NCBI RefSeq assembly: GCF_039545095.1
Contig: NZ_BAABRS010000001.1
Span: 1,178,001-1,242,000 of the forward strand
From: Fodinibius salicampi
GTDB taxonomy: Bacteria > Bacteroidota > Rhodothermia > Balneolales > Balneolaceae
DNA: 64,000 bases
Direction of reading: 5' to 3'
The translations under genes were made by a program, and so were the position numbers. Of this stretch, positions 17,760-34,904 are shown piece by piece; the stretch's first letter is position 1; every line of letters begins with the position of its first letter. The notes beneath the pieces were generated by a model that had not been told where the DNA came from, made no database searches, and saw nothing but the letters and a program-made list of their open reading frames with translations.

Positions 17760-17918
17760 AATTAGTATAGGGTGCGACATCCCTTCTCGGTTGATGCCAC
17801 TCCGAACCCTGCCGGGTCTCCATCTTATAGCTCCTCCCGTGGTGCCTAACATCATGTTCAGACATTTTACACTGCAGCCTAAGGTGTCATATTGACGGTA
17901 TATTTTAAATGTGCCCAT
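17760..17918 (-). pseudogene. Fragment of a C39 peptidase / ABC exporter gene
   Basis: From ATG at 17918 it reads MGTFKIYRQYDTLGCSVKCLNMM, matching the start of the intact exporter at 22563-24767 (MNSFKLYLQHDQMDCGPTCLRMV), and further on SGINREG is identical. Between these blocks a frameshift changes HHGRSYTMETLR into TTGGAIRWRPGR. The catalytic-Cys position is kept but the context DCGPT has become GCSVK. Nothing of the transporter domains remains. It lies 73 bp after the start-side neighbour, propeller member 8, the same order (propeller then C39) as at the intact exporter. Confidence 0.8.
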
Positions 17919-17991
17919 TAAATTGAATCTTTATATACTTCTGATATGAGCCTCTTTGAGTGCTTACATATCCACTAGAAACTACATTTCA

Positions 17992-19029
17992 TTACAGACG
18001 CTCATCTTCATACATAAGCAAACTTTTCCCCATCATATCATTAACAATGATTTTATGATCGTCGGTTACTGCCAACGCAGAACCATACATAAGCTTATCC
18101 TGATCAGAACGAAATAATTTAAAGGTCTGCTCGTGGGTGACACCACCGCCAGTGTTCAGCTTGTATTTAAACAGAAATGTAAAATTTGTATCGTAAGCCT
18201 TCGTATTTTCGTTGGGGTGTTTAGCCACTAATAAGTATATATTATTGTTATGTATAGCTGCATCAAAAAATAGAAGGGAAAAACCTCTCGCGTCAGGGTC
18301 CTCGTTTTCCTCTCTTACATACGCTATTAGTTCATGAATTTCAGGAGGGTCGATCCTGGTAGTACTGAGGAAGGTGCCTTCCAAACTATAGACTTCCAGC
18401 ACTGGTTCGGACCTTCCAATGGCAATTAATCGGTCATTATAAATAAACAACATACGCGAATTTCTACGATAGTGCCTGCTATCTTCACCGATCGTATTAC
18501 GACCAAACGTCGTGATTTGTTGCCCTTCTGCGGAAAACTTGGTTATAGGATCACTGCGACTTGGTGTTGATAAAAAAAAATGGCTGCGTTCATCCACGGC
18601 CATGTGTGAAGCGGAAGCCTCTGATATCTTCGTTTCCCGGATAAATTTTTTGTTATGGTCAAATACTAGAATTTTTGCCTGAGTCTCGTTATACACATAC
18701 AAACTGTCATTAATAATACTCATATCCGTTACTGAAGTAAACTCCCCCGGGCCCTTCCCATTTCGTTGAATGATCCCACGTAGATCCAGGTCGGGCCCAA
18801 GTTGTAGAATCTGAGACGAGCCACCACCGAGATATAAAGAAAGAAAAAATTGATTATGGATAGATTCTATTGAACTAACATTGGCAATAAACGTAGAATC
18901 ATTAAGTCCCGACACGTTCTTCACTGGTTCCAAACTAATGGGTTTTTGCGTCTTTTTTTTATTACTACAACCTGTTAAAAGAAGCATTAGAAACCAAAGC
19001 AATAGAAAAATGTTATTCAATCTTGGCAT
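17992..19029 (-). CDS. Beta-propeller lipoprotein, array member 8
   Basis: 345 residues, lipobox LLTGC (Cys21) followed by a Lys-rich SNKKKTQK, motif GKGPGEF at 91-97. It is a short divergent member with strands such as SLYVYNETQAKILVFDHNKKFI and EPVLEVYSLEGTFL; the C-terminus HKIIVNDMMGKSLLMYEDERL lacks the WP block of the major subgroup. It is directly followed by a C39 exporter fragment, so it may be the propeller of a former exporter cassette. A 199-bp gap separates it from member 9. Confidence 0.8.
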   Translation of the reverse strand: MPRLNNIFLLLWFLMLLLTGCSNKKKTQKPISLEPVKNVSGLNDSTFIANVSSIESIHNQFFLSLYLGGGSSQILQLGPDLDLRGIIQRNGKGPGEFTSVTDMSIINDSLYVYNETQAKILVFDHNKKFIRETKISEASASHMAVDERSHFFLSTPSRSDPITKFSAEGQQITTFGRNTIGEDSRHYRRNSRMLFIYNDRLIAIGRSEPVLEVYSLEGTFLSTTRIDPPEIHELIAYVREENEDPDARGFSLLFFDAAIHNNNIYLLVAKHPNENTKAYDTNFTFLFKYKLNTGGGVTHEQTFKLFRSDQDKLMYGSALAVTDDHKIIVNDMMGKSLLMYEDERL

Positions 19030-19228
19030 ATTGATGATTAAATATATTGAGGCAACACCTCGGTACTATGTCCTCATTAGAATTAATAATTGAAAATAAT
19101 GCTACCAAAATTTTCTTTACTTATTGAGATTCCTATGAACCTCTGCTTTGTAGTTAAAATTAAGCCACTTATCATGAAAATTAGGTCTCAAGCTATATAC
19201 CCATTTCCTGAAAAATTGTTCTGAATTT

Positions 19229-20464
19229 TTACCTCTGTTCGGTCATGACAATATCATACCGCACAATTTTCTCAAGTCCGGTCTCGTCCTCTGTTTCGCG
19301 GGCGTAGAGCTTGTCGTTTCTGACTTCCTCAATGGGATGGTCCCGGGGCCACTCAAATTTAGTAATCACTTCTCCGGTATCTTCGAGTATCCACCACTCA
19401 TATACCTCGTTATCCTCAACAATAGTTGAAACCCACAGACGGTTTTCGTCATAAAAAAACATAGTCTCCAGAGCCGGCCAGTCTTCGGGAAGCTCATGCT
19501 GATTGATCATCTTCCGTCTCACTTTATTTTCGGTATTTACTACTAGTTCACTTTGATTGAGTTCTGTTTGGTTGAAAGGATGTTGGATTTCCCGCAGATA
19601 TTTTCCATTCCGGTTATATACTTTTATCAGAAATTCTTTGCTCCGTGCAGAATACAGCAATCCATCTTTCGATATGGCAAACAAGGATTTTTCTAAAAAA
19701 GGAAACGTATAAGCAACTGTGTATCCATCTGGATACTTGTATACCAGATATCTGAGATCTTTCTGCTCAAATATTTTATCAGAAATGATTTCTCCATTTT
19801 CATCTTGCATATAATAATGGAGAAAGCTTTCCTCATCCAGATAATCAGTTCCCGGTCTTGAGTAGCTTACAAGGAACGATTCGTCATCTCTTGGATAGAA
19901 CTGACTTGGGTACTTTCCGTTGAGTTCTTCAAACGCTCCTCGGTTATTTGACCAAAGCGGTATAGTATGAGAAAACTCCCACGAATCCAGTGAATAGGCA
20001 TGAACTCTGAGGGGAAAGGGACTCCTATCGGCTGCATATAACATACCCGCATGAATCTTAATCGAACCTATGCCACTAAACTCACCCGGACCTTTTCCCT
20101 CCCGCCCGAGAGAAGTGTTATAACTGCCATCTGGGTTATAAACATGAATGGTTGTTTGATCCCGGTCCGCAATAAAGACCCGGCCGCTGTCATCGACCGT
20201 AAATGTTTCGATCGTCCCGACCACCACTTCATCGGTGGAACCAAAACGCTGCTCCCGCTCAAACTGAATCTCAGGGGTTAGTTTTGAATCGGCTGCGGGC
20301 TTGCTTGAATCTTCCGTAGCAACTGGTTCCCGTACCTGACTTGTATCTTCGGCGGTGGTTGATGCTTCCCTTTGATTGGTGGATGGACTACGTTCCCCAG
20401 ACTTCTCTCCCGAACAGCTCAAAAAGAACACGGAAAGCAGCAGTATAAGCGTTGATGATCTCAT
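19229..20464 (-). CDS. Beta-propeller lipoprotein, array member 9 (major subgroup)
   Basis: 411 residues, lipobox FLSC (Cys17) and an unusually long Ser/Thr/Glu-rich linker (residues 18-60) that would lift the propeller off the membrane. Motif GKGPGEF at 123-129 in the block GRVFIADRDQTTIHVYNPDGSYNTSLGR. The C-terminal block ENRLWVSTIVEDNEVYEWWILEDTGEV ... FEWPRDHP ... DKLYARE is of the major subgroup. A TCTACTATA element lies 35 nt upstream of the start, as in front of three other genes in the window. Confidence 0.85.
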   Translation of the reverse strand: MRSSTLILLLSVFFLSCSGEKSGERSPSTNQREASTTAEDTSQVREPVATEDSSKPAADSKLTPEIQFEREQRFGSTDEVVVGTIETFTVDDSGRVFIADRDQTTIHVYNPDGSYNTSLGREGKGPGEFSGIGSIKIHAGMLYAADRSPFPLRVHAYSLDSWEFSHTIPLWSNNRGAFEELNGKYPSQFYPRDDESFLVSYSRPGTDYLDEESFLHYYMQDENGEIISDKIFEQKDLRYLVYKYPDGYTVAYTFPFLEKSLFAISKDGLLYSARSKEFLIKVYNRNGKYLREIQHPFNQTELNQSELVVNTENKVRRKMINQHELPEDWPALETMFFYDENRLWVSTIVEDNEVYEWWILEDTGEVITKFEWPRDHPIEEVRNDKLYARETEDETGLEKIVRYDIVMTEQR

Positions 20465-20498
20465 GATAAAATATTCCCATTCCCATATAATATTACCT

Positions 20499-21084: not shown

Positions 21085-21129
21085 GCTATATACTATTGAT
21101 CTCCACTCGCTTAACAAATCACCTTAACA
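21085..21129 (-). promoter_or_regulatory. Decayed TTAACA-box promoter
   Basis: Two TTAACA boxes (21111-21116, 21124-21129) lie 20 nt from a TATAGC -10-like hexamer on the minus strand (21085-21090). The third box present at the other three sites (28.3, 30.5, 32.6 kb) has been lost. It would read into the propeller remnant at 20929-21030, so it probably served a gene that has decayed. Confidence 0.5.
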
Positions 21130-21134
21130 TTTTG

Positions 21135-22475
21135 TTATTGTAATTGTTTTGAGATATTGTTATAAAAGCGTTCCAATAATCGCATATCCTGGGTGATAAT
21201 TTCTGCTTGACCCATCATCGCGTCTCTGGGCGGCAGTTCCTGACCATAATTTGTAGTGAGTCCCTGGGGGAAATTAACCTTTCCAATAAAGACACTGTCT
21301 CTGACCGGTATATCCGATAAATAGTTTATTTCTCCCGTAACGGTCCCAAATTCCTGGTCCGGATACCCGCTAAATCGAACCAATACCTGCTGTCCCTCTT
21401 TAATCTTACCAAATGAACGTTGAGAGACCCTCAATTGACCAAAGAACTGAGTATTCTCGGGCTGTATATAAAACAGCTCCTGCCCTGTTTGGAGCGTTTG
21501 TTTTTCCTGGAGAATACTTGCATATATTATTTTTCCACTAAGCGGCGCTGAAATCAAATAATTGGATTTCCATTCATCTATGGCACTCTTCAAAGCATTC
21601 AATTCCTGCAAGAAGACAGATTTTTGCTCGCTAATCTGTCGATCAAGCTCCATCAGCTCTTGCTCTTTAGCCGCTTGAGTAATATGATTATTGATAATGG
21701 CCGATTCCGTTTGCTGCAGAGGCAGTCTTTGATTCAACAGTTTACTTTCATGCTGTGCAAGCTCCATGGGAGCGACCAACTCTTTCTCTGAAAGTCGCTT
21801 CTTCATTGCATACTCCTGTTGGGAAAGCTTAAAATCTTTTGTTTGTATCTCCTTTTGCTGTCTCAGCTTATCCAGCAGTTGTTGATTGTATTCCATCTCC
21901 TCCTCCAAAATACGACGTTTCTTATGATAAAAACCATCCGGAAGAAATGACTTAAACTCACGCCAGGCTTGATCAAAAGCCTGGAATTGTGTCTGCAAGC
22001 CGCCCAGATCAGAAAAACGGCTCAACTTTACGTTGCGAAACTTATTCAGATGGTCATTTATCAGCCAATGATACATGCTATCAACCCGGGCAGAAAGTTC
22101 TATCACTTCTTCATGGCTGGCGGTCGTCTCAAGCCATGCTAGTATCTCTCCCTCTTCAACCACAGTATCATTTTCGGATATTAAGTTAACCAGCTTCCCG
22201 TTAACCTTGCTTTCCAGCATTTTAGGAGCATTAACTGCCGTTAGTTTCAGAGGAACTTTGATGGTCTCGGGATATTCAACAAACCATGCACTCAGTAATA
22301 CCAATAGTAAAATGATCATAAAAGCCGCTATCCCTCCGCGTACCAACCAGTGTGGCGGACGGCCAATGATTTCCTGGACTTCCGCACTGCGGACATTCAG
22401 CTCCGGCAAATCACTGCCTTCAGGAGTCTCCCGATTGGGAGCTCCGTTATCGATCAGGTTATTTGTTACTTCCAT
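21135..22475 (-). CDS. HlyD-family secretion adaptor of the peptide exporter
   Basis: A 446-residue membrane-fusion protein that should bridge the C39 ABC exporter to the outer membrane. It has a cytoplasmic N-terminus, one TM helix near residues 48-67 (AAFMIILLLVLLSAWFV), a short lipoyl-like half (SKVNGKLVNLISENDTVVEEGEILAWLE), a long helical hairpin with repeated Gln/Glu/Lys heptads (about 160-300), and the second half (APLSGKIIYASILQEKQTLQTGQELFYI) followed by the beta-barrel segment. It follows the exporter gene by 87 bp on the same strand. The start region is rich in acidic and polar residues. Confidence 0.92.
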   Translation of the reverse strand: MEVTNNLIDNGAPNRETPEGSDLPELNVRSAEVQEIIGRPPHWLVRGGIAAFMIILLLVLLSAWFVEYPETIKVPLKLTAVNAPKMLESKVNGKLVNLISENDTVVEEGEILAWLETTASHEEVIELSARVDSMYHWLINDHLNKFRNVKLSRFSDLGGLQTQFQAFDQAWREFKSFLPDGFYHKKRRILEEEMEYNQQLLDKLRQQKEIQTKDFKLSQQEYAMKKRLSEKELVAPMELAQHESKLLNQRLPLQQTESAIINNHITQAAKEQELMELDRQISEQKSVFLQELNALKSAIDEWKSNYLISAPLSGKIIYASILQEKQTLQTGQELFYIQPENTQFFGQLRVSQRSFGKIKEGQQVLVRFSGYPDQEFGTVTGEINYLSDIPVRDSVFIGKVNFPQGLTTNYGQELPPRDAMMGQAEIITQDMRLLERFYNNISKQLQ

Positions 22476-22562: not shown

Positions 22563-24767
22563 CTAAGCATCCAGCTCCAATTGATTCTCCACCAGATCAA
22601 AATAAGCCCCCTCCGAATGAATCAATTCACGATGCGTCCCCTGCTCTATCAGACGCCCTTCATCCAGAACCACGATATTATCAGCATTTTTGACCGTACT
22701 TAACCGGTGCGCTACAACAATAACCGTGCGATTCTGGAAGAACTCCTCCAGGCTTTCCATAATGGTACGCTCATTATTTGCATCTAATGCATTGGTTGCC
22801 TCATCAAAGAAAATAAAGGCCGGGTCCTTATAGACCGCACGGGCAATTAATATACGTTGTTGTTGTCCCTGGCTAATACCATTACCTTCATCACCGATAT
22901 TTGTATTAAAGCCCAGTGGTAGCGATTCAATAAAGGATCGGATATTTGCAACTTCTACCGCATGCTCTAGCTTCTCCAGATCCGGATGGTCTTCCCCCAC
23001 CGCGATATTTCCAGCGATCGTATCAGAAAAAATAAAACCGTCCTGCATTACCACCCCACAGTGCTTCCGCCAGGTCCGGGGACTTAAGGTTTTAAAGCTT
23101 CGCTTTCCCAGACGTATGTTTCCTTTATCAGGCTGGTAAAACTTTAGCAATAGCTTGAGCAATGTAGTCTTTCCACTTCCACTCATTCCAACTATAGCCG
23201 TTGTTTTACCTTCGGGAATTTGTAAATCGATCTCCTTCAGAACAGGTTCGTTACCTGCTCCGGGATAGCTAAACCATAAATCTTCAATTGCCAGATCCTT
23301 TTTCTCGGGCAGACGATGTACAAACATCTGTTCCTCAGGCTCTTCATCTTCTTTGGTATGAATCTCATTAAGGCGTTCCAGGCTGATGTGGGCATCCTGG
23401 GCGGACTGAACAAAGCCGATGAGTTGTTCAATAGGGCTATTCAGTTGCCCGATAATGTACTGAATCGCCATCATTGCGCCCAGCGTTAGCTGACCGTTAA
23501 CCACTGCTACTGCCGCAATAAAGGTGATACCAATATTTTTTCCCTCATTAATAAAAAAGGCGCCCCCCTGCTGATACTGATTCAGGGTAAGATTCTTAAT
23601 TCTATACTGAAACAAACGGGCCTGCAGACGTTCCCACTCCCACCGTTTTTGGGTTTCGCACCCGTTAAGCTTAATCTCCTGCATGCCCTGAATCAGCTGA
23701 ATGACCTTACTCTGGTCGCTGGATGAAATACTAAACCGCCGGTGATCTAACTCTCTTCTCTTTTTCAAGAACAGGAACACCCAAATAATATAGAGCGCAC
23801 TGCTGACTAAAAACACCGAGAAAATCAGCATATTATAATAGGCTAAGACAGCAGAAAACACCAGCAGATTCATGAATGAAAAGAGCGTGCCAAGCATCTG
23901 GCTGGTCAAAAAGTTTTGAATACGGGCATGATCCTCCATCCGCTGCATAATATCCCCCACCATTTTCGTATCAAAAAATGACATTGGCAGTCTCATTAAC
24001 TTGATCAGGAAATCGGAAAGGATGGAGATATTAATGCGGGTGCTCATATGCAACAGAATCCATGATCGGATAAACTCTACCGCCGTGCGCCCCATAAAAA
24101 GCATTACCTGGGCAATAAGTATCAGGTAAATAAAATTCAGATCACGGGTCTGAATTCCAATGTCCACCACCGCCTGAGTGAGAAAGGGGAAAATAAGCTG
24201 CAGGATACTGCCGGCCAGCAGCCCCAGCGCCAGCTGTACAATTAAATTCTTATAGGGAAGGACGTATCGAACCAGCATACCAAAATCCAGCCCCTCCCGT
24301 TCTTCATCTTCGAGCTCATAAAATTTCGGGGAGGTATAAAGGAGCAAACAAATTCCTGTACTCCGACCATTTTGTTTGGCATTGAGCCAGGCCTCTAAAA
24401 ATTCCTCCTTCTGATATATCACTTTCCCTTTGGCAGGGTCCGCAATATATACCTTATTTCCTTTAATGCGGTAGACCACCACGAAATGGAATTGATTCCA
24501 ATAGACAATACACGGCAACTGCGCCTCTTTTTTTAGCTGCTCCCAACTTAGTTTTGCCCCAACGGTTCGCAATCCTATGCTTTCTGCGGCCTCGCTAATG
24601 CCCAGCAGTGATACCCCTTCCCGGTTGATCCCACTTTTTTCACGCAGGGTTTCCATTGTATAACTTCGGCCGTGATGTTTGGCTACCATCCGAAGACAGG
24701 TCGGACCGCAATCCATTTGGTCGTGTTGAAGATAAAGCTTAAAGCTATTCATCTTAAGTTCGTTCAA
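22563..24767 (-). CDS. C39-peptidase-containing ABC exporter for double-glycine peptides
   Basis: A 734-residue bacteriocin-type exporter that cuts the leader behind a double-glycine-like site and pumps the core peptide. Peptidase domain: catalytic Cys20 (DQMDCGPTCL), His94 (NQFHFVVVY) and Asp110 (YIADPAKG). Six-TM permease domain about 165-450. Nucleotide-binding domain: Walker A GMSGSGKT at 527-534, signature ISQGQQQ at 631-637 in place of LSGGQ, Walker B FIFFDE at 651-656, H-loop His687. A second possible start is Met6. It begins 9 bp after the stop of propeller 24777-25904 and is followed by HlyD, so propeller, exporter and adaptor form an operon; the two precursors at 26195 and 30090 are likely cargo. 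Confidence 0.95.
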   Translation of the reverse strand: MNELKMNSFKLYLQHDQMDCGPTCLRMVAKHHGRSYTMETLREKSGINREGVSLLGISEAAESIGLRTVGAKLSWEQLKKEAQLPCIVYWNQFHFVVVYRIKGNKVYIADPAKGKVIYQKEEFLEAWLNAKQNGRSTGICLLLYTSPKFYELEDEEREGLDFGMLVRYVLPYKNLIVQLALGLLAGSILQLIFPFLTQAVVDIGIQTRDLNFIYLILIAQVMLFMGRTAVEFIRSWILLHMSTRINISILSDFLIKLMRLPMSFFDTKMVGDIMQRMEDHARIQNFLTSQMLGTLFSFMNLLVFSAVLAYYNMLIFSVFLVSSALYIIWVFLFLKKRRELDHRRFSISSSDQSKVIQLIQGMQEIKLNGCETQKRWEWERLQARLFQYRIKNLTLNQYQQGGAFFINEGKNIGITFIAAVAVVNGQLTLGAMMAIQYIIGQLNSPIEQLIGFVQSAQDAHISLERLNEIHTKEDEEPEEQMFVHRLPEKKDLAIEDLWFSYPGAGNEPVLKEIDLQIPEGKTTAIVGMSGSGKTTLLKLLLKFYQPDKGNIRLGKRSFKTLSPRTWRKHCGVVMQDGFIFSDTIAGNIAVGEDHPDLEKLEHAVEVANIRSFIESLPLGFNTNIGDEGNGISQGQQQRILIARAVYKDPAFIFFDEATNALDANNERTIMESLEEFFQNRTVIVVAHRLSTVKNADNIVVLDEGRLIEQGTHRELIHSEGAYFDLVENQLELDA

Positions 24768-26194: not shown

Positions 26195-26461
26195 TTAATA
26201 AGAACATTCACCTCCACATACTGTTCCATGTTGATTGGAACCAGCATACCAAGAGTCATAAAATCCATCTAAACAACTCACCGTGATTTGTGTACCGAAC
26301 ATACTACCAGAATCCACGGTAACTTGACAATTAGAACTACCACTAGAATAATTACACGTACAATCAGGACTCCCACTACCACTGCCTGCAACAATAGTTT
26401 TCATCTCATTACGACTTAGTACATCGTCTTCTTTTACGTTCATTACATTGAGTGTTTTCAT
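26195..26461 (-). CDS. Cysteine-rich double-glycine peptide precursor 1
   Basis: An 88-residue RiPP or bacteriocin precursor of the Bacteroidota GG-leader type. The leader MKTLNVMNVKEDDVLSRN-EMKTIVAG ends at a double-glycine-like AG (residues 25-26), with SG repeats giving alternative cut sites. The core has six Cys (34, 36, 45, 63, 82, 86), is rich in Ser, Gly and Thr, and contains DSWYAGS, close to TSWYSGS of precursor 2. The start has AGGAG at good spacing. It is the gene after the VKOR-thioredoxin fusion and upstream of the propeller-exporter operon. An even number of Cys with a disulfide-forming enzyme next door suggests three disulfides, or two plus modified Cys. No radical-SAM or LanB/LanM enzyme is nearby. 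Confidence 0.87.
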   Translation of the reverse strand: MKTLNVMNVKEDDVLSRNEMKTIVAGSGSGSPDCTCNYSSGSSNCQVTVDSGSMFGTQITVSCLDGFYDSWYAGSNQHGTVCGGECSY

Positions 26462-26582: not shown

Positions 26583-28217
26583 CTATTTGTAGGTAATATG
26601 ACTATAATTTTGTATACCTTCATCCATTCCAGTTACAGGAATTTCTTCCACTATTCCAGGTATTAGTCCCATCAACTCTTCCATACGATATTCCTTTGGT
26701 ACTTCATATCCATTTATAAAAAAGGTGGGGGTTCGGCTAATGTCTACCTTTTCAAACCACCTTTTCCATCGGTCAATTAGCTCACGACCTTCTTCCTGTC
26801 CGTCTCCATTCAACGTAATCGAATATTCTTTCTTGAAGAGTTCCAAATCCATAAAGTCATACCACGTCTGAAGCAGCTCTTTCGTACGAATTGACTCATC
26901 TCGTTTTCCATATATTCTTTTCTGCCAGTAATGCAGGAGGTACATATCGGGAGTAACAGCACCGTTAGTAGCACCACTCAGTAAAAAACGGATGCGCAAA
27001 CTAATCTTCTGAGGATATGTTCGAACCAATTGTATCGCCTTTTCAAATCCTTCTTTACAGGGACTACAACCAAGACTTCCTACCATCAGGAGTGTTATTG
27101 GGGCATCAGGACTTCCAATCCCTAAATCCTTTTCCTCGGATGTTATATTCACCTGTATTTGCTGGGTAAGGAGATGCATAAATACCGAAGGAGCATTTTT
27201 AATTCGGGTTGCTCTTATCTCACCCTCCGTTGCTCTTTTGGCTTTCTGAAGCTTGTTTTTAAATAGCAAAATTGCTGTCCCGATCGCTATAAAAAGAAAG
27301 CCTGTGTCAACAATTATCCCCGGATGAATATCATTTAGTGGTATCATATTTTCAAAGTACAGGGCACCAAAAAGCACTGATTGAACTATCAGCACTCCAT
27401 CTATCGCCAAACAAAGCCGGCACCATGTTTTTAACTTTACCGACTGATAATAGAGAGAGTATCCAATAATCGGAATGGTCATAGCGCTTAATACCGCTAA
27501 TATTCCCAAAAAAGAAAATGCTGATTCGGCAACTGGAATGAATAGGCTGAGTATAACCAGTTGAAAAATAAAGTAGGTTGCCACTGCATCCGAAAGGGTT
27601 ACCTTTCCAAATAGCTGAGCGGCATCAGGCTGTAATACGGCATCGCAGTTGATCTTTTTCCCTTGCTTACAAAACGATTCCACTAGCTCATAAGTAATAC
27701 CAACCTCCTTTGCTATAAGCAGATATCCGGCCATACTACCAGCTATTGCTGTTACAAGTAATAAAGCATGCATCCACGAGGATACTTGTATGGAGGAAAT
27801 AACAACTATTCCTGCAATAGCAGCTGTTAAAATAATGGCTGTAGCCTTCAAAAACGTTTCTTCCGACCGCTGCTCATTATTTTTTTCATCTGTGATGGTA
27901 TCGGTAGGTTCTACCTGGAGTACTGCTCCATGGGTATAAGTATCGCTATTATCGATTTCAGGAAGATCCTGCCGGTTTTTTATAAGCATTAGCTCCCCTC
28001 TGTCACCATTAATTTGGAGCAGATACGGAAACTCCAGTTTGTCAACGGTTTCCTTTGTAATACGGGCGGCCTGATATCGGATGCCAAGCTGCTCCAACGT
28101 ATCGGCAATACTCAGCAATGATGGATAGTCGGGATGGGACAGAATTAATTTCTTACAATACTTTGATGATACAGGAATATTAAGCTCTTTCAGGTATTCA
28201 ACTACAGTTTCTTCCAT
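26583..28217 (-). CDS. C39-like / VKOR / DsbA-like thioredoxin fusion (disulfide-forming enzyme)
   Basis: A 544-residue membrane protein. Residues 1-100 resemble the C39-like N-terminal domain seen in such fusions (LILSHPDYPSLLSIADTLEQLGI), lacking a peptidase triad. About 125-320 is the vitamin K epoxide reductase fold with several TM helices, loop cysteines Cys183 and Cys191 (KINCDAVL) and the active CRLC at 266-269. The C-terminal domain is thioredoxin/DsbA-like with CSPC at 384-387 and a cis-Pro loop SRTPTFFING. It should oxidise periplasmic thiols and pass electrons to quinone. Lying between two six-Cys precursors, its obvious substrates are the exported peptides. A TTAACA-box promoter stands about 70 nt upstream. 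Confidence 0.9.
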   Translation of the reverse strand: MEETVVEYLKELNIPVSSKYCKKLILSHPDYPSLLSIADTLEQLGIRYQAARITKETVDKLEFPYLLQINGDRGELMLIKNRQDLPEIDNSDTYTHGAVLQVEPTDTITDEKNNEQRSEETFLKATAIILTAAIAGIVVISSIQVSSWMHALLLVTAIAGSMAGYLLIAKEVGITYELVESFCKQGKKINCDAVLQPDAAQLFGKVTLSDAVATYFIFQLVILSLFIPVAESAFSFLGILAVLSAMTIPIIGYSLYYQSVKLKTWCRLCLAIDGVLIVQSVLFGALYFENMIPLNDIHPGIIVDTGFLFIAIGTAILLFKNKLQKAKRATEGEIRATRIKNAPSVFMHLLTQQIQVNITSEEKDLGIGSPDAPITLLMVGSLGCSPCKEGFEKAIQLVRTYPQKISLRIRFLLSGATNGAVTPDMYLLHYWQKRIYGKRDESIRTKELLQTWYDFMDLELFKKEYSITLNGDGQEEGRELIDRWKRWFEKVDISRTPTFFINGYEVPKEYRMEELMGLIPGIVEEIPVTGMDEGIQNYSHITYK

Positions 28218-28413: not shown

Positions 28414-28614
28414 TTATAATCCGCTGATAGTCCAGCTCTCCGCAGCCTCACAAATACCCAGCAGTGATACGCCCTCTCGGTAAATACCGCTCCGGCCCCG
28501 CAGGGTTTCCATTGTATAGCTGCGACCATGATGCCGTGCCACCATGCACAGGCAGGTAGGGCTACGGTTCATTTTATTATGCTGCTTATAAAAACGGAAT
28601 GTATTCATAATCAC
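28414..28614 (-). pseudogene. C39 exporter fragment with internal deletion and lost catalytic Cys
   Basis: It reads MNTFRFYKQHNKMNRSPTCL then ARHHGRSYTMETLRGRSG and EGVSLLGICEAAES, nearly the first 63 residues of the intact exporter; but DCGPT is now NRSPT, so the nucleophile is gone. After AAES the sequence jumps in another frame to ELDYQR, which corresponds to RELDHRRF at residues 338-345 of the exporter: about 820 bp are missing. The same junction occurs in the fragment at 33310-33637. It lies 95 bp after propeller 28710-30023. Confidence 0.85.
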
Positions 28615-28709
28615 ATCAGAAAAGTAGTAGCCCTGTCAACAAACAAAAAGGATTTCAGGAGGCATTATATTGAAGCTATAAGCAGAAAGTTTAATACAAA
28701 ATTAATCAT

Positions 28710-30023
28710 TTAATTCTCAGTTAGCTCAAGACGATATTTAACGACATATTCTGCACCTGTTTCTTCATCCACTTTTTTGCTGTAGAGATACCCGTTTTTG
28801 ATGTCGTAAATCGGTTGATCACGGGGGAGCAATAACTTCGCAAGCAGTTTACCGGAAGAGTTGAGGATCCACCATTCATAGATATTACTTTTTGCACCGA
28901 TAGGTACTGCAACCCATATTCTATTTTCATCATCCACCATTAATTTATCTATCACAGGTGAGGTTTTCGGTAACTCTTCATCTATGTCTTTGAAAGCTTT
29001 TTTCACTTCATCTATCTTTGGAATACTTGGTCCAAATTTTCTCCCAGATTTTAGAAACTCTTCAAAATCCAATGATGAACCCTCTATGGGATAATAAAAA
29101 GCGGATTGATAAATACCGTTTGGGTTATACTTTTTGATTAAAAATTCCTGAGTATTAGCAGCGAATAATTCACCTTCACTTGACATTGCAGTCAGAGTAC
29201 GACCAATAGGAAAAATATTTGGAAAAGGATAATTTTTCTCTGTCACAATTCGAAGATTCCCATAAAAAGTAAAAGGCTTGAAATCCAAACTATTCCCGTC
29301 CAAATCCATCAGTAGATACGTAGATTTACTCCTCGAGGAAACTTCATTTAAACTAGGTTTATAGAATTCTACCAAAATTTTTCCGTCATTTCGGACCTTC
29401 ATTCCTCCTAACCTGAACCCTTGTATATCTTTTTCATTTCTGATGTCCCAACGTTCCTCAGGCGAGGTCTTAAATATCGAATAATCATCTATGTTATACG
29501 CATTTATACGCATGCCAGTAACATCATATAGATACACCCTTCCAACATTTCCTTGCAGAAAAAACGGTTCAAGATACTCACCAGGACCCCTACCCGGTCT
29601 ACCAAGCGGAGTACGGTAGGTGCCATCATCGTTAAATACATGCAATGTTAATGCATAGTTTGACCCACGATCGGCTATAATTACACGACGCTTATCGTCA
29701 ACCGTGAGCCACTCAACTTTTGTTAAATAATATTCTCCCGTTTTACCATACGTTTGTAGCGGAACAAGTTGAGCAGAAAATGGGGCATTTGAATCTCCTC
29801 GGAAAACGGAGAGATTTTCAACCTGCTTAATATGTTTTGGAATTTCCTCAAGTACCCGGTAATATGATGAATGCCTATATTCTTCCAGCTGAAGTTGCCC
29901 TAGCTTATTTAGTTGCTCTGTTACATTTCGCTGATTACCTTTTTTTTGCGAAGAATGTTCAGAACACCCAGCAAAAAAAACACACAAAAAAGAGAGCAAT
30001 ATTATATTTAGAAGAAATTTCAT
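28710..30023 (-). CDS. Beta-propeller lipoprotein, array member 11 (precursor 2 cassette)
   Basis: 437 residues, the longest lipoprotein of the major subgroup, lipobox FAGC (Cys20), motif GRGPGEY at 144-150. The extra length is a charged segment of about 45 residues between the anchor and the 'IPKHIKQVENLSVF' block. The C-terminus has DDENRIWVAVPIGAKSNIYEWWILN and NGYLYSKKVDEETGAEYVVKY. It sits 66 bp after precursor 2 and is followed by a C39 exporter fragment: the same order as precursor 1, member 10, intact exporter. With 33660-34904 it forms the closest pair (both have 'LLMDLDGNSL/LVDTDGNAL' and 'YEWWxL'). Confidence 0.86.
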   Translation of the reverse strand: MKFLLNIILLSFLCVFFAGCSEHSSQKKGNQRNVTEQLNKLGQLQLEEYRHSSYYRVLEEIPKHIKQVENLSVFRGDSNAPFSAQLVPLQTYGKTGEYYLTKVEWLTVDDKRRVIIADRGSNYALTLHVFNDDGTYRTPLGRPGRGPGEYLEPFFLQGNVGRVYLYDVTGMRINAYNIDDYSIFKTSPEERWDIRNEKDIQGFRLGGMKVRNDGKILVEFYKPSLNEVSSRSKSTYLLMDLDGNSLDFKPFTFYGNLRIVTEKNYPFPNIFPIGRTLTAMSSEGELFAANTQEFLIKKYNPNGIYQSAFYYPIEGSSLDFEEFLKSGRKFGPSIPKIDEVKKAFKDIDEELPKTSPVIDKLMVDDENRIWVAVPIGAKSNIYEWWILNSSGKLLAKLLLPRDQPIYDIKNGYLYSKKVDEETGAEYVVKYRLELTEN

Positions 30024-30089: not shown

Positions 30090-30356
30090 CTATAGATAAT
30101 CTTTATTACATAACGCTATCCTGTTCGTCTCCTGTCGACCCACAAGATTTATACAATCAATTGCTTCCTGACTACCTGAATACCAAGAGGTACAATTACC
30201 TCTTTGACAATTATAATATGAACTTATACCTGTACAGCCATCGCTAGGGTATTGACATCCATCAATAGTAATACCACTTCCTGCCATAATAGACTTCATC
30301 TCATCTCGATTCAGTACATCCTCTTCTTTTACGTTCATTACGTTGAGTGTTTTCAT
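30090..30356 (-). CDS. Cysteine-rich double-glycine peptide precursor 2
   Basis: 88 residues, the same length as precursor 1. The leader MKTLNVMNVKEEDVLNRDEM-KSIMAG differs from that of precursor 1 at few positions; the cores differ almost completely except for the six-Cys count (34, 41, 50, 55, 68, 83) and the TSWYSGS motif at 56-62. Conserved leader with diversified core is what one expects for cargo of one exporter. GGAGA precedes the ATG. A TTAACA-box promoter begins about 125 nt upstream. The glycosyltransferase and LanC-like genes lie just upstream, so this peptide is the more likely substrate of modification. Confidence 0.86.
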   Translation of the reverse strand: MKTLNVMNVKEEDVLNRDEMKSIMAGSGITIDGCQYPSDGCTGISSYYNCQRGNCTSWYSGSQEAIDCINLVGRQETNRIALCNKDYL

Positions 30357-30482: not shown

Positions 30483-30540
30483 ACTATAACAATTCTGATC
30501 ACTCCCCGCTTAACAAATCACCTTAACATTTCACTTAACA
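30483..30540 (-). promoter_or_regulatory. TTAACA-box promoter of precursor 2
   Basis: Boxes at 30510-30515, 30523-30528 and 30535-30540 and a TATAGT hexamer at 30483-30488 on the minus strand, 21 nt apart. It lies between the stop of the glycosyltransferase gene and the precursor, giving a leader of about 120 nt. Confidence 0.6.
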
Positions 30541-30573
30541 TTTTCTAAAAGACGAAGAAGACTAAAAAATAAT

Positions 30574-31356
30574 CTATCCTCTCCATGAGTTTACCTCTTC
30601 ACCTAATTCCTTCTTTGACATTGAAGCAATCCGGTATATTTCGGAAATCTTGATATTTTTTTGTTCTTCGGCGTGGAATGTACTGTTCTCCCCCCGGTCA
30701 TGGGTTAGATGAAAAAGAGGTCCGGGAACGCGTTCTACCGTAAAATCCAAAATTTCCCAGCGGTTAAGTCGATCTCCATCCTCTCTCCCCCAGCCATAAT
30801 AATGCTCGTTTTCCATACCAGATTTGATATAGGCTTCTCTTTCCGCTAAAAAACCACCGCCGACCGGATTGGGTGAATAGAGTTCCTTCATTTTTCCCGC
30901 ATGCTCTTTCAATAAGTCAAGGTCCCGGCTCTTAATATACAGCTCCCGCAGAATTGAGCTTGTATCCAAGAACTTATCTTCATAAGGGTATACGAAGTCC
31001 GCTTCTTCATTTCTTAAGAGGTTCACGGACTGGATAAGTTGATCTGGCGAGACGATCACATCGGTATCCCAAACAGCCAGATAGGGTGTAGAGGATCTCT
31101 CAACCAATTGATTGATATACTTCGTACGGTGAAAAACCGGATCGTGATCCTCTACAAATGTAATGTTAACCCCCGAAGGCAGCAGCCTTTCTAATACCTT
31201 ATTGTTATAGGCAGTAGCTTCCAGCAGGTGAATAGAAGTCTCAAAATGAGTCAATAAAAAATCAGTGACCAACATAATATTTTCGAGGCGCACGATAGAA
31301 TCTACTCGCACCGGGATAAGAAAGGTTACATCCTCTATACTTGTTTTTTCACTCAT
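30574..31356 (-). CDS. Glycosyltransferase, GT2-like with galactosyltransferase C-terminal motif
   Basis: A 260-residue soluble glycosyltransferase of the GT-A fold. It begins DVTFLIPVRVDSIVRLENI, has the metal-binding DTD at 97-99 (AVWDTDVIVSP), GGGFLAERE for the acceptor side, and GWGREDGDRLNRW at 188-200, which matches the GWGxED motif of the galactosyltransferase C-terminal (GT7-like) domain. No TM helix or signal peptide is seen, so it acts in the cytoplasm, before export. Its place between the LanC-like gene and precursor 2 suggests that it glycosylates the peptide. Sugar and acceptor residue are unknown; a role in surface polysaccharide is the alternative, but no such genes are near. 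Confidence 0.85.
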   Translation of the reverse strand: MSEKTSIEDVTFLIPVRVDSIVRLENIMLVTDFLLTHFETSIHLLEATAYNNKVLERLLPSGVNITFVEDHDPVFHRTKYINQLVERSSTPYLAVWDTDVIVSPDQLIQSVNLLRNEEADFVYPYEDKFLDTSSILRELYIKSRDLDLLKEHAGKMKELYSPNPVGGGFLAEREAYIKSGMENEHYYGWGREDGDRLNRWEILDFTVERVPGPLFHLTHDRGENSTFHAEEQKNIKISEIYRIASMSKKELGEEVNSWRG

Positions 31357-31429
31357 TGCTTTGCACTTATTTTATGATTTATCCAGAGATGAAAAATAAA
31401 AGCTGTCTCTCCAAACATATGGTTGGTAG

Positions 31430-32530
31430 CTATACACTACGCATACTCACCGGTTCTTTTTGGGATAATTCCAGCAGTTCCATACCAATGCCCGCAAGTC
31501 CGGAAAGCAATCCAAAATTTATTTTTTCCGGTTCTCTCTCTTTTACAAGCTGCCAATACTCAGAAGTATTTATTTTCTTAATCAGGTCATCTCTTTTGAA
31601 CCGTAACCTTTCATCATTGGTTAACGAAAAAAGCTGACGACTGATAAAAGAGATTCCGGCCGCTCCATTTACCAAGCCTATATTTTTATTCGTTAAATCG
31701 TTTCGCAGAATATCAGGTAAGAAAATATCCTTTTTTAGCAACCCGAAGTGTCTATCCCAGTCTTCTATATGGATTTGCTGAAGAACACTTTGCAAACCGA
31801 GCAAAAGATATAACCTGTTGCTCGGCGAACGGGGATAGAGAGAAAGTAATACCGGTGACAAGCACTCCAGTATTCGATCAATTTTGGAATTATAAAAATT
31901 CATGCTCCTGATCTTTGCAAGCAATATGAGAGAAAGAGGAAGGTCCCATGTCAAATCAAATAGCAAGGGCTCCTGTAGCCTAAGCTTCCGTTCTTCCGTC
32001 AGTGTTCCCATGCGGTTGACAAGGCGAATTATTAGCCGTTTATAAATAAAAATATTTGGATCTTCTGCATCAATATTCTTGCCTTTTAAGCGGGATAGAA
32101 TATAAATAAGAAAGCCTATTACTCCCTTTGATATTCCAATCGGAAGCTTTTCAGCAGAACGGAGATACTGATATATTTTTTCATCAACTTTTGATAAAAC
32201 CGCATCCGTATCGGCCTCTAAAAATTTATTTTGCACCAAGTACTCGAGGCCCCAGGCAATTCCGGCCAGACCGTTTTTAAAATCAACGGGTGGCTGTTTG
32301 TTACTTACTTCCTCATATACCTCATCAATTAACTGTTCAGCAACTTCCCGGTAATCAGAATTCTCGGTTTTCCTGACAAGGTGAAAAAAGTAAATACTTA
32401 TACCCATCTTGCCATTAAGTAAGCCGACATTATTTATAGTCGGGATATTCTGAACCAGCAGCTGAGCGATTTCTTGATCTTTTCCTGATAGCGCAGCCGT
32501 ACTATTATTTATATTGATATTGTGGGACAT
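31430..32530 (-). CDS. LanC-like protein lacking zinc ligands
   Basis: 366 residues with the repeated toroid motifs of the lanthionine synthetase C family: GLLNGKMGI (36-44), FKNGLAGIAWGLEYL (84-98), GISKGVIGFLIYI (132-144), NIGLVNGAAGISF (about 290) and NFGLLSGLAGIGMELLELS (about 340). In true cyclases the later motifs carry the zinc ligands (WCYG and CHG); here the corresponding residues are NG and SG, with no Cys or His. No dehydratase (LanB or LanM) is in the window. It is therefore more likely a binding or scaffold protein than a lanthionine cyclase. It is 73 bp upstream of the glycosyltransferase and probably in one transcript with it from the TTAACA promoter at 32.6 kb. Confidence 0.85.
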   Translation of the reverse strand: MSHNININNSTAALSGKDQEIAQLLVQNIPTINNVGLLNGKMGISIYFFHLVRKTENSDYREVAEQLIDEVYEEVSNKQPPVDFKNGLAGIAWGLEYLVQNKFLEADTDAVLSKVDEKIYQYLRSAEKLPIGISKGVIGFLIYILSRLKGKNIDAEDPNIFIYKRLIIRLVNRMGTLTEERKLRLQEPLLFDLTWDLPLSLILLAKIRSMNFYNSKIDRILECLSPVLLSLYPRSPSNRLYLLLGLQSVLQQIHIEDWDRHFGLLKKDIFLPDILRNDLTNKNIGLVNGAAGISFISRQLFSLTNDERLRFKRDDLIKKINTSEYWQLVKEREPEKINFGLLSGLAGIGMELLELSQKEPVSMRSV

Positions 32531-32602: not shown

Positions 32603-32660
32603 ATTATAATGAGCTGGAGCGATCCCCGCTTAACAAATCACCTTAACATTTCACTTAACA
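32603..32660 (-). promoter_or_regulatory. TTAACA-box promoter of the LanC-like / glycosyltransferase operon
   Basis: Boxes at 32630-32635, 32643-32648 and 32655-32660, and a perfect TATAAT at 32603-32608 on the minus strand with 21 nt between. Predicted transcription start near 32596, about 65 nt before the gene at 32530. The outermost box touches the stop codon of the AraC-type gene. Confidence 0.6.
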
Positions 32661-32663
32661 TTT

Positions 32664-33053
32664 TCAGGACTCGTGGCGAAATTCTGACGGCGTGACTCCT
32701 TTCCGGCGTTTAAACGTCCGGCTGAAAGCAGAGTGGCTGCTAAAACCAACAACAATTGCTACATGCAATATGGGATATTCTGCCGGTACTCTCTTTAACA
32801 GCCTGCATGCAGCGGCTATTCGATATTTTACTATATACTCCTTCGGTGATAACCCTACGTAATATTTAAAGGTGCCGGAAAAATTAGTGCCGTTTGCTGT
32901 ACATTTTTCTTTTAACTGCTGCACCGTCAATGTTGGATCAAACAAATGTTCATGAATACAATGAAGAACACGATGAATCTTATTCGGCCACTCTGGTTTG
33001 GGCTCAGGCAGCTCTTTGCGAAATATTTTTAATTCCAATTCTATTTTGCTCAT
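32664..33053 (-). CDS. Short AraC-family DNA-binding regulator
   Basis: 129 residues from the ATG at 33053, chosen over a TTG 18 nt upstream because AGGAG stands 8 nt before it. The C-terminal two-thirds is an AraC-type double helix-turn-helix: LTVQQLKEKCTANGTNFSGTFKYYVGLSPKEYI then the second helix pair PILHVAIVVGFSSHSAFSRTFKRRKGVTPSEFR with the family's 'GF.....FSR.FK...G.TP..FR' pattern. Only about 40 charged residues precede it, so there is no sensor domain. It heads the peptide locus and could control it, although the TTAACA boxes look more like OmpR/PhoB sites. Confidence 0.85.
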   Translation of the reverse strand: MSKIELELKIFRKELPEPKPEWPNKIHRVLHCIHEHLFDPTLTVQQLKEKCTANGTNFSGTFKYYVGLSPKEYIVKYRIAAACRLLKRVPAEYPILHVAIVVGFSSHSAFSRTFKRRKGVTPSEFRHES

Positions 33054-33309
33054 AGCGCTTACTCCTCTCAAAATTTACTTTCCCCACCGATAGGTCTTTG
33101 ATAAATCTGCAGATTACTTTTCTCTTGGTTATGTATTTTTGATGCACCTCTCTATTTAACAAGAGTAAATAACAGGTAAAATGTTACAAAATATTATGAA
33201 ATATTAGAGTACTTTAATAATAGGTCCTGTATAATAGACTCAAATAATCCGCATAACCTCCCCTCCCTAATGCAAATAATACAAAGGTAGAATCTTAGTC
33301 AGATGTGTA

Positions 33310-33637
33310 ACTTTCAACGTTCTCTTCCGACAGCTGCAGCCGCCCCCATTCCCAGCGTTTTGACGTTCACAGGTGTTGAGCTTAATGGACTGCATTCCCT
33401 GGATGAGCTGAAATACCGAACCGCTGGTAGTCCAGCTCCCTGCTGCCTTGCTGATGGCCAGCAGCGATACCCCTCCCGGTTGATACCGCTCCGGTTGCGA
33501 AGGGTCTCCATGGTATAGCTGCGCCCATGATGCCGAGCCACCATTCGCAGACAGGCCTGCTCTCCATAGTTTTAACGACGAAGGGTGGGGCCGCAGTCCA
33601 TGGCATCGTGTTGGCGATAATAGGGAAACTTAATCAT
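33310..33637 (-). pseudogene. C39 exporter fragment with internal deletion and frameshift
   Basis: Starts MIKFPYYRQHDAMDCGPT with the catalytic Cys intact, then a disrupted stretch of about 30 bp and a frameshift, then CLRMVARHHGRSYTMETLRN and SGINREG. After LLAISKAAG it jumps to ELDYQRFGIS and, in another frame, VFQLIQGMQSIKLNTCERQN, which match residues 338-375 of the intact exporter. The deletion junction is the same as in 28414-28614. It begins 22 bp after the stop of propeller 33660-34904. The adjoining gap 33054-33309 shows nothing recognisable. Confidence 0.85.
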
Positions 33638-33659
33638 ATCGAAACAGACCTTTATGAAG

Positions 33660-34904
33660 TTATCGTTCTGTCAGGTTAATGCTATATTTGACAACTTTGC
33701 TTTCCCAGTTTTCTGTATCATTGCTGTCGCCTGAATCAAAATATTTTGTGTAAAGGTACCCGTTTTGAATATCGCAGATCGTTTCATTATCGGGAATAAT
33801 AATCTTTGCGAGGAGTTCTCCTGACTCTGCGAGCATCCACCACTCGTAGGTCGCTGGGTATTCGACCATAACAGATACCCAAATCCTGTTTTTATCATCC
33901 ACCATTAAATCCTGTATTACAGAGAACGATTCTGGAATCTCAATATTAGCCTCCTCTAATGCATTCTTCAAGGCGTATTGAGACAACATCGGGCCGGATT
34001 TCCTTTCAATAAAGGATTCCATATCGAAGGGAGGACCCATTACCGGGTAATAAAATGCGAATTGGTAGGTGCCCTCGCTGTCATATTTTTTTATCAAAAA
34101 CTCATCGGTCCGGGCCGTATAGAATTCATCATCATTGGTAAGTCCATATAGTATAGAACCCAAAAACGGCAGTGGAATTCTTGCTGAAACCGGAAGCATA
34201 AAATCACCCTGACTGTCATTTGCAATGTAAAATGGAGATGGCAACTCTATCAGCGGCTCAGGGTTTAACGCATTCCCATCCGTGTCAACAAGCATAAATT
34301 TTGTATTCCCGGTTCTGCCGGAACCGGTCGGGTACCCCTTGAATATGGACAACAGGTTGCCGTCACTCCTGGCATAGAAACCGCTCAATTTCATGTTCCG
34401 GACCGCATCAAGGTCTCTGACGTCCCAATCCTCAAGTCTTGTTGCTTTTTCAAATGAGTAATCATCGGTAGTAAACAGACTAAGACGTTTGATTGATTCG
34501 TCATGCAGAAAAATCTTGCCAGTATTGATTTGAAAGTTTGATGATATGAATTCGTATTCACCGGGTCCCCTTCCGATTCGGCCGATTTGCGTACGATACG
34601 TCCCCTCGGGATTATAGACATGAAGCTCGGTTTTGAAATCGTTTTTCAATCCCCTGATAATCACCCGGTCATTGTCATCCACCGCACAACCGGCAATAGC
34701 CATCCAATAGGGCTTGCCAGATCCGCCAAAAGACTGCTCTTGGATAAGATCCACCTCATAGGTCGGCTCCGAGTCGGCCGGGTATACCGTCAGGCTGTCA
34801 AGCTCCTGAATATATTCTGCTTTTTCTGATGTGGAATTATTGGAACATTGAATTAGGAAAAAACATAGTAGTATACTCAATAATAAACTTTGGGAATGTT
34901 TCAT
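33660..34904 (-). CDS. Beta-propeller lipoprotein, array member 12 (major subgroup)
   Basis: 414 residues, Cys20 in FLIQC (Gln before Cys is unusual for a lipobox), motif GRGPGEY at 111-117. Blade text DDNDRVIIRGLKNDFKTELHVYNPEGTYRTQIG and the C-terminal DDKNRIWVSVMVEYPATYEWWML ... NGYLYTKYFDSGDSND are of the major subgroup; the sequence is closest to member 11. A C39 exporter fragment follows directly, so this is one of four propeller-C39 pairs. Confidence 0.85.
   Translation of the reverse strand: MKHSQSLLLSILLCFFLIQCSNNSTSEKAEYIQELDSLTVYPADSEPTYEVDLIQEQSFGGSGKPYWMAIAGCAVDDNDRVIIRGLKNDFKTELHVYNPEGTYRTQIGRIGRGPGEYEFISSNFQINTGKIFLHDESIKRLSLFTTDDYSFEKATRLEDWDVRDLDAVRNMKLSGFYARSDGNLLSIFKGYPTGSGRTGNTKFMLVDTDGNALNPEPLIELPSPFYIANDSQGDFMLPVSARIPLPFLGSILYGLTNDDEFYTARTDEFLIKKYDSEGTYQFAFYYPVMGPPFDMESFIERKSGPMLSQYALKNALEEANIEIPESFSVIQDLMVDDKNRIWVSVMVEYPATYEWWMLAESGELLAKIIIPDNETICDIQNGYLYTKYFDSGDSNDTENWESKVVKYSINLTER

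What the first reader, a model, noticed from the sequence alone, without database searches (positions are those of the whole stretch)
17760..34904. Repeating cassette: a propeller gene directly followed by a C39 exporter gene, four times
Seen: the intact C39 exporter (22563-24767) begins 9 bp after propeller 24777-25904. Three decayed C39 gene starts lie in the same place behind other propellers: 17760-17918 behind 17992-19029, 28414-28614 behind 28710-30023, and 33310-33637 behind 33660-34904. In two cases a GG-leader precursor stands in front (26195 and 30090). Inference: the ancestral unit was precursor, propeller, C39 exporter; duplication followed by exporter decay left orphan propellers. 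This ties a widespread lipoprotein family of unknown function to peptide export, as receptor, immunity protein or surface partner.
Basis: partly seen in the sequence, partly recalled or inferred. Interest (0 to 1): 0.9.

Follow-up and report, generated by a model that had tools for sequence, protein, structure and literature searches.

The report
Peptide-and-propeller cassettes with exporter remnants
A bacterium related to Fodinibius carries a long row of genes for propeller-shaped lipoproteins whose relatives in other genomes often sit right behind a gene for a small cysteine-rich secreted peptide and sometimes before its exporter; the propeller is probably the matching protection or binding partner of the peptide, and the unpaired propellers with scraps of exporter look like leftovers of past peptide weapons.

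Summary
One intact C39 exporter and three C39 5' remnants each lie 9-86 bp behind a propeller gene; they are the only matches to this peptidase domain in the genome.

The pattern is general. In 28 Balneolales loci propeller->C39 adjacency occurs 28 times against 11.3 expected (0 of 2000 shuffles): 9 of 13 full-length exporters, 3 of 3 long partial ones, 16 of 18 short remnants. None of 33 distant C39 control loci shows it.

The stronger unit is the pair GG-leader Cys-rich peptide -> propeller: 54 of 61 precursors are followed by one. Peptide cores covary with the downstream propeller (r 0.37; 0 of 2000), not the upstream one (r -0.05); the exporter does not detectably covary (r 0.03, low power).

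Modular gain with displacement and erosion fits better, like orphan immunity arrays.

Most likely the propellers are cognate immunity lipoproteins. This is inferred, not shown. Of 29 propeller loci from a phylum-wide search only one had such a peptide, itself in a C39 cluster, so the link concerns these clusters, not the whole family.

The parts
17718..17918 (-). C39 exporter 5' remnant (codons ~6-53), frameshifted, behind propeller 17992
   Evidence: 42% aa; 75% nt over 142
17992..19029 (-). propeller gene (divergent member) directly in front of a C39 remnant
   Evidence: PF17170 8.6e-10
19229..20464 (-). propeller gene downstream of HlyD, no precursor
21111..21129 (-). TGTTAA direct-repeat element (copy 4)
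21135..22475 (-). HlyD-type periplasmic adaptor
   Evidence: PF13437 2.5e-11
22563..24767 (-). intact C39-peptidase ABC exporter, the only intact one with this peptidase domain in the genome
24777..25904 (-). propeller lipoprotein, paired with precursor 26195, 9 bp before exporter
26195..26461 (-). GG-leader Cys-rich precursor A
26583..28217 (-). VKOR-thioredoxin (DsbA-like) oxidoreductase
   Evidence: PF07884, PF13462
28309..28358 (-). TGTTAA direct-repeat element (copy 1), upstream of VKOR
28414..28623 (-). C39 5' remnant with codon 62/338 scar
28710..30023 (-). propeller lipoprotein, paired with precursor 30090; AlphaFold model mean pLDDT 83.5
30090..30356 (-). GG-leader Cys-rich precursor B
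30503..30545 (-). TGTTAA direct-repeat element (copy 2), upstream of precursor B
30574..31356 (-). glycosyltransferase (Glyco_transf_7C)
31430..32530 (-). LanC-like protein
   Evidence: PF05147 8.4e-17
32620..32664 (-). TGTTAA direct-repeat element (copy 3), upstream of LanC
32664..33071 (-). AraC-type regulator (label from reading the translation)
   Evidence: sequence; no family search run
33310..33637 (-). composite C39 remnant: codons ~6-62 joined to ~338-380
33660..34904 (-). propeller lipoprotein in front of composite remnant; nearest kin in another genus is also followed by a C39 remnant and has a precursor
   Evidence: 72% to L074:13343
35015..53756 (-). run of propeller genes without precursors (35015, 36197, 37405, 41241, 43169, 44666, 45805, 47122, 48662, 49876, 51248, 52455), interrupted by two other genes (38695, 39931)
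10515..17721 (-). second run of propeller genes without precursors (10515, 11708, 12776, 14060, 15332, 16864)

Best explanation
The locus is a peptide-secretion island built from exchangeable cassettes. Each cassette is a Cys-rich peptide with a double-glycine leader followed by its own propeller lipoprotein; a shared C39-HlyD exporter removes the leader and exports the peptide, and a VKOR-DsbA protein probably forms its disulfides. The propeller is most likely the cognate immunity protein: anchored by lipid in the envelope, it binds its peptide and keeps it from its target. New cassettes arrive by recombination, often together with exporter sequence. The older exporter copy then erodes by deletion, leaving C39 5' (and sometimes HlyD 3') scraps, and older peptide genes disappear, but the propellers are kept because they protect against neighbours that still make those peptides. 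Shown here: the gene order, the cognate covariation, no detectable covariation with the exporter, the erosion scars, and purifying selection on unpaired propellers. Inferred: antibacterial activity, binding, immunity, lipid anchoring and the route of gain.
For: Precursor->propeller: 54 of 61 precursors by profile, plus one by Pfam; in the 28 Balneolales loci 50 of 58 adjacent against 18.4 +- 3.1 in within-locus shuffles, 0 of 2000. Propeller->C39: 28 against 11.3 +- 2.5, 0 of 2000; 0 of 33 distant-C39 control loci, one of which (L077) ends ~160 bp upstream. Core vs downstream propeller r 0.37 over 1211 between-genome comparisons of 51 pairs, 0 of 2000; in the 24 precursors with propellers on both sides r 0.53 downstream, -0.05 upstream. 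For cores with a match of 0.25 or more, 25 of 31 have the matching propeller in the top 5 of ~48, null mean 3.3, max 12. 67 of 115 propellers carry no precursor by the pairing; three of the 67 follow a precursor with a truncated core, so 64. dN/dS 0.14-0.36 in the 8 comparisons that involve a window propeller, all unpaired. Genomes G006, G012, G017, G061 (98-99% complete) keep propellers beside a broken exporter that is their only match of this clade; in G015 it is broken near codon 379. VKOR->precursor 14 vs 3.2. Draconibacterium shows 4 precursor-propeller pairs, one precursor read by eye.
Against: No activity, binding or protection is known. Clusters L080 and L081 have 1 and 3 precursors without any propeller in ~20 kb, and of 76 loci of this exporter clade from other Bacteroidota only 3 show a propeller within 10 kb, with a profile that may miss distant ones, so a propeller is not obligatory. 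Covariation could reflect co-transfer of a linked pair without binding. Some pairs break it: L085:6294 and L093:5563 share a core (0.48) but their propellers are unrelated (rank 37 of 45). Spearman over all comparisons is about zero (-0.04). Unpaired window propellers are not enriched for paired nearest kin: 10 of 24, against about half of the other propellers (46 of 89). The exporter test has low power (14 loci, null sd 0.20). Bacteroidetocin producers seem to lack immunity proteins (PMC6671954, passages). A lipobox-like motif was recognised in only 81 of 115 propellers, with starts possibly mis-called.
Confidence: 0.5

Rival explanations
1. The propeller is a surface or periplasmic receptor for the peptide (a signal or kin-recognition system); unpaired propellers listen to peptides of others.
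For: The same cognate pairing and many unpaired propellers; beta-propellers are common binding scaffolds (established knowledge; fold matches); an AraC-type gene and a shared TGTTAA element lie in the cluster.
Against: For the four C39-adjacent propellers Pfam shows no other domain and the model of 28710 shows no further domain beyond N-terminal helices. Among the 36 loci scanned the TGTTAA element lies in the window and in two loci of the same genus only.
Confidence: 0.2
2. The propeller is a maturation or display partner: it folds, modifies, or holds the exported peptide on the cell surface.
For: Operon position between precursor and exporter; a peptidyl-hydroxyglycine lyase of the same fold is among structural matches (3fvz, Z 15.1).
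Against: In the alignment of 24 window propellers only G144, G146, P147 and E149 (numbering of 28710) are invariant, and I see no catalytic pattern. More than half of the propellers stand without a precursor. Some clusters have peptides without one.
Confidence: 0.15
3. Local tandem duplication of one precursor-propeller-exporter unit followed by decay.
For: Four propeller-C39 junctions within 17 kb; two remnants share one deletion scar and their propellers fall in one 14-row clade; two other window propellers, 48662 and 51248, are local duplicates at 85% aa.
Against: Within that clade 28710 and 33660 join different genomes, and 17992 and 24777 lie elsewhere; C39 adjacency is random on the tree.
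Confidence: 0.08
4. Propellers and peptides are co-located only because both sit in a hot spot; no functional tie.
For: Gene gain and loss is intense here, and dispersed repeats are present in the window.
Against: Specific direction and order, covariation with the downstream but not the upstream propeller, and recurrence in Draconibacterium.
Confidence: 0.07

Closest known systems
Bacteroidetocins (PMC6671954; passages read)
   Same: GG leader of 15-16 aa, Cys-containing peptide with disulfides, C39 ABC exporter, thiol oxidoreductase, in Bacteroidota
   Different: Bacteroidetocin regions carry a five-TM protein and no obvious immunity protein, and producers inhibit themselves; here most peptides are followed by a propeller lipoprotein, HlyD is present, and cassettes are many and polymorphic
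Orphan immunity gene arrays of Vibrio cholerae T6SS (PMC5361080; passages read), and Rhs/CDI orphan modules (mentioned in the same passages)
   Same: Arrays of diverse unpaired partner genes, with kin sitting in pairs in other strains; displacement leaves gene ends; local duplication rejected
   Different: Here small exported peptides and a lipoprotein partner, and the remnants are exporter 5' ends, not effector 3' ends; immunity is not demonstrated
TIGR04149 (rSAM-modified RiPP, GG_sam_targ_CFB) and NF047798/NF047792 bacteriocin-like leaders
   Same: Leader region matches weakly, E 0.087 to 1.6e-4 and below cut-off in 5 of the 8 precursors given; the L180 precursor is above the TIGR04149 cut-off (45 bits)
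   Different: Window precursor 26195 is below all cut-offs and 30090 has no match; cores unrelated
DUF5128/PF17170 6-bladed propellers; solved folds 3s9j (DUF4221) and NHL domains
   Same: Fold: Z 19.3, 4.2 A over 309 residues to 3s9j; PF17170 above cut-off for all four C39-adjacent propellers
   Different: Described in Pfam only as a 6-bladed propeller; none of the 50 listed solved entries is titled as a peptide-immunity protein
LanC-containing lanthipeptide clusters
   Same: LanC-like gene 31430
   Different: No LanB or LanM-type dehydratase match in the genome, but the control also rang nowhere, so absence is not shown

Membership tests
Bacteroidetocin-type peptide clusters | GG-leader peptide with at least two Cys | tested here: met
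   leader profile and translations of both window precursors
Bacteroidetocin-type peptide clusters | C39 ABC exporter and thiol oxidoreductase | tested here: met
Bacteroidetocin-type peptide clusters | five-TM accessory protein | tested here: inconclusive
   none noticed on reading the translations of 17.7-33.6 kb; no TM prediction run
Bacteroidetocin-type peptide clusters | antimicrobial activity | not testable with these tools
   needs bench work
Orphan immunity array | unpaired members have kin paired with an effector in other strains | tested here: met
   10 of 24 unpaired window propellers have a paired nearest kin elsewhere; not enriched over background
Orphan immunity array | members not products of local duplication | tested here: met
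   clear exception 48662/51248
Orphan immunity array | partner specificity between effector and immunity protein | tested here: inconclusive
   sequence covariation of peptide and propeller is present; binding untested
Orphan immunity array | orphan gene gives protection | not testable with these tools
   needs bench work
DUF5128 propeller family (PF17170) | score over Pfam cut-off | tested here: met
   all four C39-adjacent propellers 38.7-41.4 bits vs 22.9; 20 of 23 window matches over cut-off, 3 below
Lanthipeptide (class I or II) | LanB or LanM dehydratase | tested here: inconclusive
   no match in own genome, but controls empty

The most novel reading that the evidence does not exclude
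Six-bladed propeller lipoproteins are a new class of immunity protein for disulfide-rich GG-leader peptide toxins in Gram-negative Bacteroidota, specific to one peptide type each. Balneolales keep libraries of them (23 propeller genes in 43 kb here), accreted by cassette displacement in front of a shared exporter; the exporter's discarded 5' ends act as recombination patches, as the shared scar beside two different propellers hints.
Probability: 0.35. Interest if true: 0.78.

Novelty: new variant of a known kind. Interest (0 to 1): 0.62.

Why it matters
It gives a subset of an uncharacterised lipoprotein family a testable role: a one-to-one partner of a secreted peptide. The predictions can be tested pair by pair. 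If immunity is confirmed, it would show a form of self-protection for bacteroidetocin-like peptides, for which none is described in the passages read, and propeller arrays could be read as a record of the peptides a lineage has met.

Tried and rejected
Site-specific integration at the C39 5' end: 15 of the 17 short remnants not cut by a contig end stop between codons ~53 and ~107, without a common end sequence; L082 and L089 stop near 156-158, and the long partial copies L087 and L092 near 379. The crowding at codons 53-107 and the repeated break near codon 62 (two window remnants, L069, L068:15589) stay unexplained. Local duplication. A link between NVEALA peptides (PF14055) and propellers, recalled and from no call: only 2 weak matches in 148 genomes. 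TIGR04149 as a general handle: 9 of 148 genomes. Propellers like the Draconibacterium one: 1 of 394 genomes at E <= 1e-10, no GG leader beside it. Remnant precursors elsewhere in the window: none below E 0.26 with the two window precursors as queries, and the leader profile finds only the two. A decayed precursor between 20464 and 21135: none seen. The first shuffle test wrongly merged neighbouring propellers; one search replaces it. The propeller profile was built from 26 window propellers and may miss distant ones outside Balneolales. The 28 loci were chosen by C39 matches, so they are rich in propellers; the shuffles allow for that, but propeller arrays without any C39 piece were not sampled. 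In one search, 10 of 61 precursors were dropped: 3 for short cores, 7 without a profile propeller. L076, a distant C39, is left out of the exporter counts drawn (it is in the shuffles). One structure model only, from 24 window sequences.
Full report
OBSERVATION. The window lies in a 3.94-Mb genome of 11 contigs. By kinship it is from a genus that seems to include Fodinibius halophilus: locus L137 carries that name and agrees with G010:C23 (same genus) in contig length and exporter position. I call the order Balneolales from such record names; the searched genomes themselves are unnamed. PF17170 (DUF5128, 6-bladed propeller) matches 28 places at E <= 0.01, 23 of them in this window. With divergent members I count 26 propeller genes here, all on the minus strand. 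The C39 exporter at 22563-24767 is intact. N-terminal C39 pieces at 17775-17918, 28435-28623 and 33470-33637 are the only other matches to its peptidase domain in the genome. All four start right behind a propeller (9, 73, 86 and 22 bp). The remnants at 28.4k and 33.5k share one deletion scar joining codon ~62 to codon ~338, though their propellers are only 39% identical.

IS IT GENERAL? Searches of 92 family genomes and 244 class genomes with the C39 N-terminus found one close clade and distant C39 exporters (26-32% identity over the full length, three at 51%). I read the neighbourhoods of 28 Balneolales loci (the window and 27 fetched ones; 27 of the 28 hold clade members and one, L076, a distant C39) and of 33 loci of distant exporters. 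Excluding L076, 28 of 34 clade members have a propeller as the next gene upstream: 9 of 13 full-length, 3 of 3 long partial copies (L073 cut by a contig end, L087 and L092 ending near codon 379 inside their contigs), and 16 of 18 short remnants, one of the other two lying at a contig end. None of the 33 distant loci has one directly upstream, L077 ending ~160 bp upstream; one (L096) has a weak propeller match about 6 kb away. Label shuffles within loci, strands kept, give 11.3 +- 2.5 for propeller->C39 (0 of 2000 reach 28). Short remnants occur in G091, G011, G058, G068, G055, G012, G017, G006 and G061 as well as in the window. L082 and L083 join a C39 5' end to an HlyD 3' end, and L093:6977 and L084:4385 are HlyD 3' pieces behind propellers. 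Erosion of C39-HlyD behind a standing propeller is thus a repeated event.

THE CLOSER UNIT. A leader profile found 61 Cys-rich GG-leader precursors in 30 loci scanned (the 28 Balneolales loci, L213 and L180); in 33 control loci it found one weak match. 54 of 61 precursors are followed on the same strand within 500 bp by a propeller, and one more by a DUF4934 propeller. The six without are L080 (1), L081 (3), L086:5412 and L115:8154. Shuffles give 18.4 +- 3.1 against 50 observed in the Balneolales loci. Draconibacterium mangrovi (L213), from the genome scan, repeats the design with four precursor-propeller pairs around C39 and HlyD (one precursor read by eye), and Parabacteroides chinchillae (L180) has one pair, its propeller a weak profile match. 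The scan keeps the best 80 of 568 loci. Four of them (L134-L137) are records of genomes already in my set, three with a propeller directly before C39; of the other 76 only L213 has one there and L161, L180 and L213 have any within 10 kb (profile made from window propellers).

COGNATE PAIRS. Core similarity and downstream-propeller similarity correlate across genomes (r 0.37, 51 pairs, 1211 comparisons, 0 of 2000 permutations). In the 24 precursors with propellers on both sides, r is 0.53 for the downstream and -0.05 for the upstream propeller. The leader correlates less (r 0.19, 11 of 2000 reach it). Exporter and adjacent propeller, 14 loci, do not correlate (r 0.03, null sd 0.20, so only a strong tie is excluded). 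The effect remains when comparisons with propeller similarity of 0.4 or more are left out (r 0.22, 0 of 1000). Spearman over all comparisons is about zero: most cores are too unlike to compare, and the signal is in the recognisable ones. For the 31 precursors with a core match of 0.25 or more, 13 have the matching propeller as best of ~48 and 25 in the top five (null means 0.6 and 3.3); for the 20 below 0.25 it is 3 and 8. Exceptions exist (L085:6294 with L093:5563).

HISTORY. On a tree of 152 propellers (FastTree, 51 of 148 inner branches weak) 33660 joins a propeller of G068 that is also followed by a C39 remnant, 28710 joins propellers of G058 and G047, both within one 14-row clade, and 24777 and 17992 lie elsewhere. 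C39 adjacency needs 22 changes for 25 carriers, as for shuffled labels (22.8 +- 1.3, 300 shuffles); having a precursor needs 34 for 48 (37.2 +- 2.7). Exporter and precursor are therefore gained and lost readily around propellers. One local duplication is clear: 48662/51248. Unpaired propellers stay under purifying selection (dN/dS 0.14-0.36 in 8 comparisons involving a window propeller; some dS values are near saturation). Ten of 24 unpaired window propellers have a paired nearest kin elsewhere, no more than background (46 of 89). This resembles the Vibrio T6SS orphan immunity arrays (PMC5361080, passages): diverse unpaired partners, kin paired elsewhere, gene ends left by displacement, duplication rejected.

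MECHANISM. By established knowledge C39 domains cut at GG motifs during export, and VKOR-DsbA proteins make disulfides. A lipobox-like motif was found in 81 of 115 propellers. The model of 28710 (mean pLDDT 83.5) is a propeller close to 3s9j and NHL domains, with four invariant residues in the alignment of 24, which suits a binding protein better than an enzyme. A cognate protein retained without its peptide, and in G006, G012, G017 and G061 beside a broken exporter with no other match of the clade (G015 likewise, broken near codon 379), points to protection, with reception as the main rival; note that G012 and G017 still hold precursors. Bacteroidetocins are the nearest peptide system, with GG leader, disulfides, C39 exporter and thiol oxidoreductase but no obvious immunity protein (PMC6671954, passages).

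LIMITS. PF17170 rings in 31 of 148 phylum genomes at E <= 1e-8, but of 29 loci fetched there only L254 has a GG leader, and it belongs to the C39 cluster of G004. So the finding concerns a sub-group of the family defined by context. No paper tying these propellers to peptides appeared in searches (titles and starts of abstracts; 25 of 68 and 12 of 1,929 papers listed; open-licence PMC papers only).

Noticed in passing
28309-28358, 30503-30545, 32620-32664, 21108-21132: A conserved TGTTAA direct-repeat element (AATGTTAAGGTGATTTGTTAAGCG, up to 3 mismatches) occurs four times in the whole genome, all here: upstream of VKOR, precursor B and LanC, and 647 bp upstream of propeller 19229. Similar repeats in L083 and before a precursor in L087. 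Probably a dedicated regulatory site.
   Followed up: partly
54478-54789, 42569-42875 (inverted), 6825-7070: Dispersed ~310-bp repeat, 24 matches genome-wide, three in the window around and within the propeller array; nature unknown.
   Followed up: partly
57974-58058 and 60395-60478: 85-bp block (89% identical) duplicated at the starts of two unrelated genes (an efflux pump by reading, and a propeller).
   Followed up: no
30574-32530; L086, L074, L210, L205, L180:5678-6628: LanC-like gene next to a Glyco_transf_7C-type gene recurs beside this exporter clade; in Parabacteroides L180 one ORF appears to hold parts of both. A LanC-glycosyltransferase peptide modification is possible.
   Followed up: partly
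28414-28623 and 33310-33637; L069:778, L068:15589: C39 remnants break repeatedly near codon 62, and two share the same 62/338 junction beside different propellers; recombination through remnants or a deletion hot spot. L087 and L092 both end near codon 379.
   Followed up: partly
L081:8723-9650: Three Cys-rich GG precursors between VKOR and the C39 exporter with no propeller in ~20 kb: a natural comparison for what the propeller adds.
   Followed up: no
48662-49816 and 51248-52477: Local duplicate propellers (86% nt) flanking an unlike propeller gene with a Cys-containing C-terminal extension (49876-51237).
   Followed up: no
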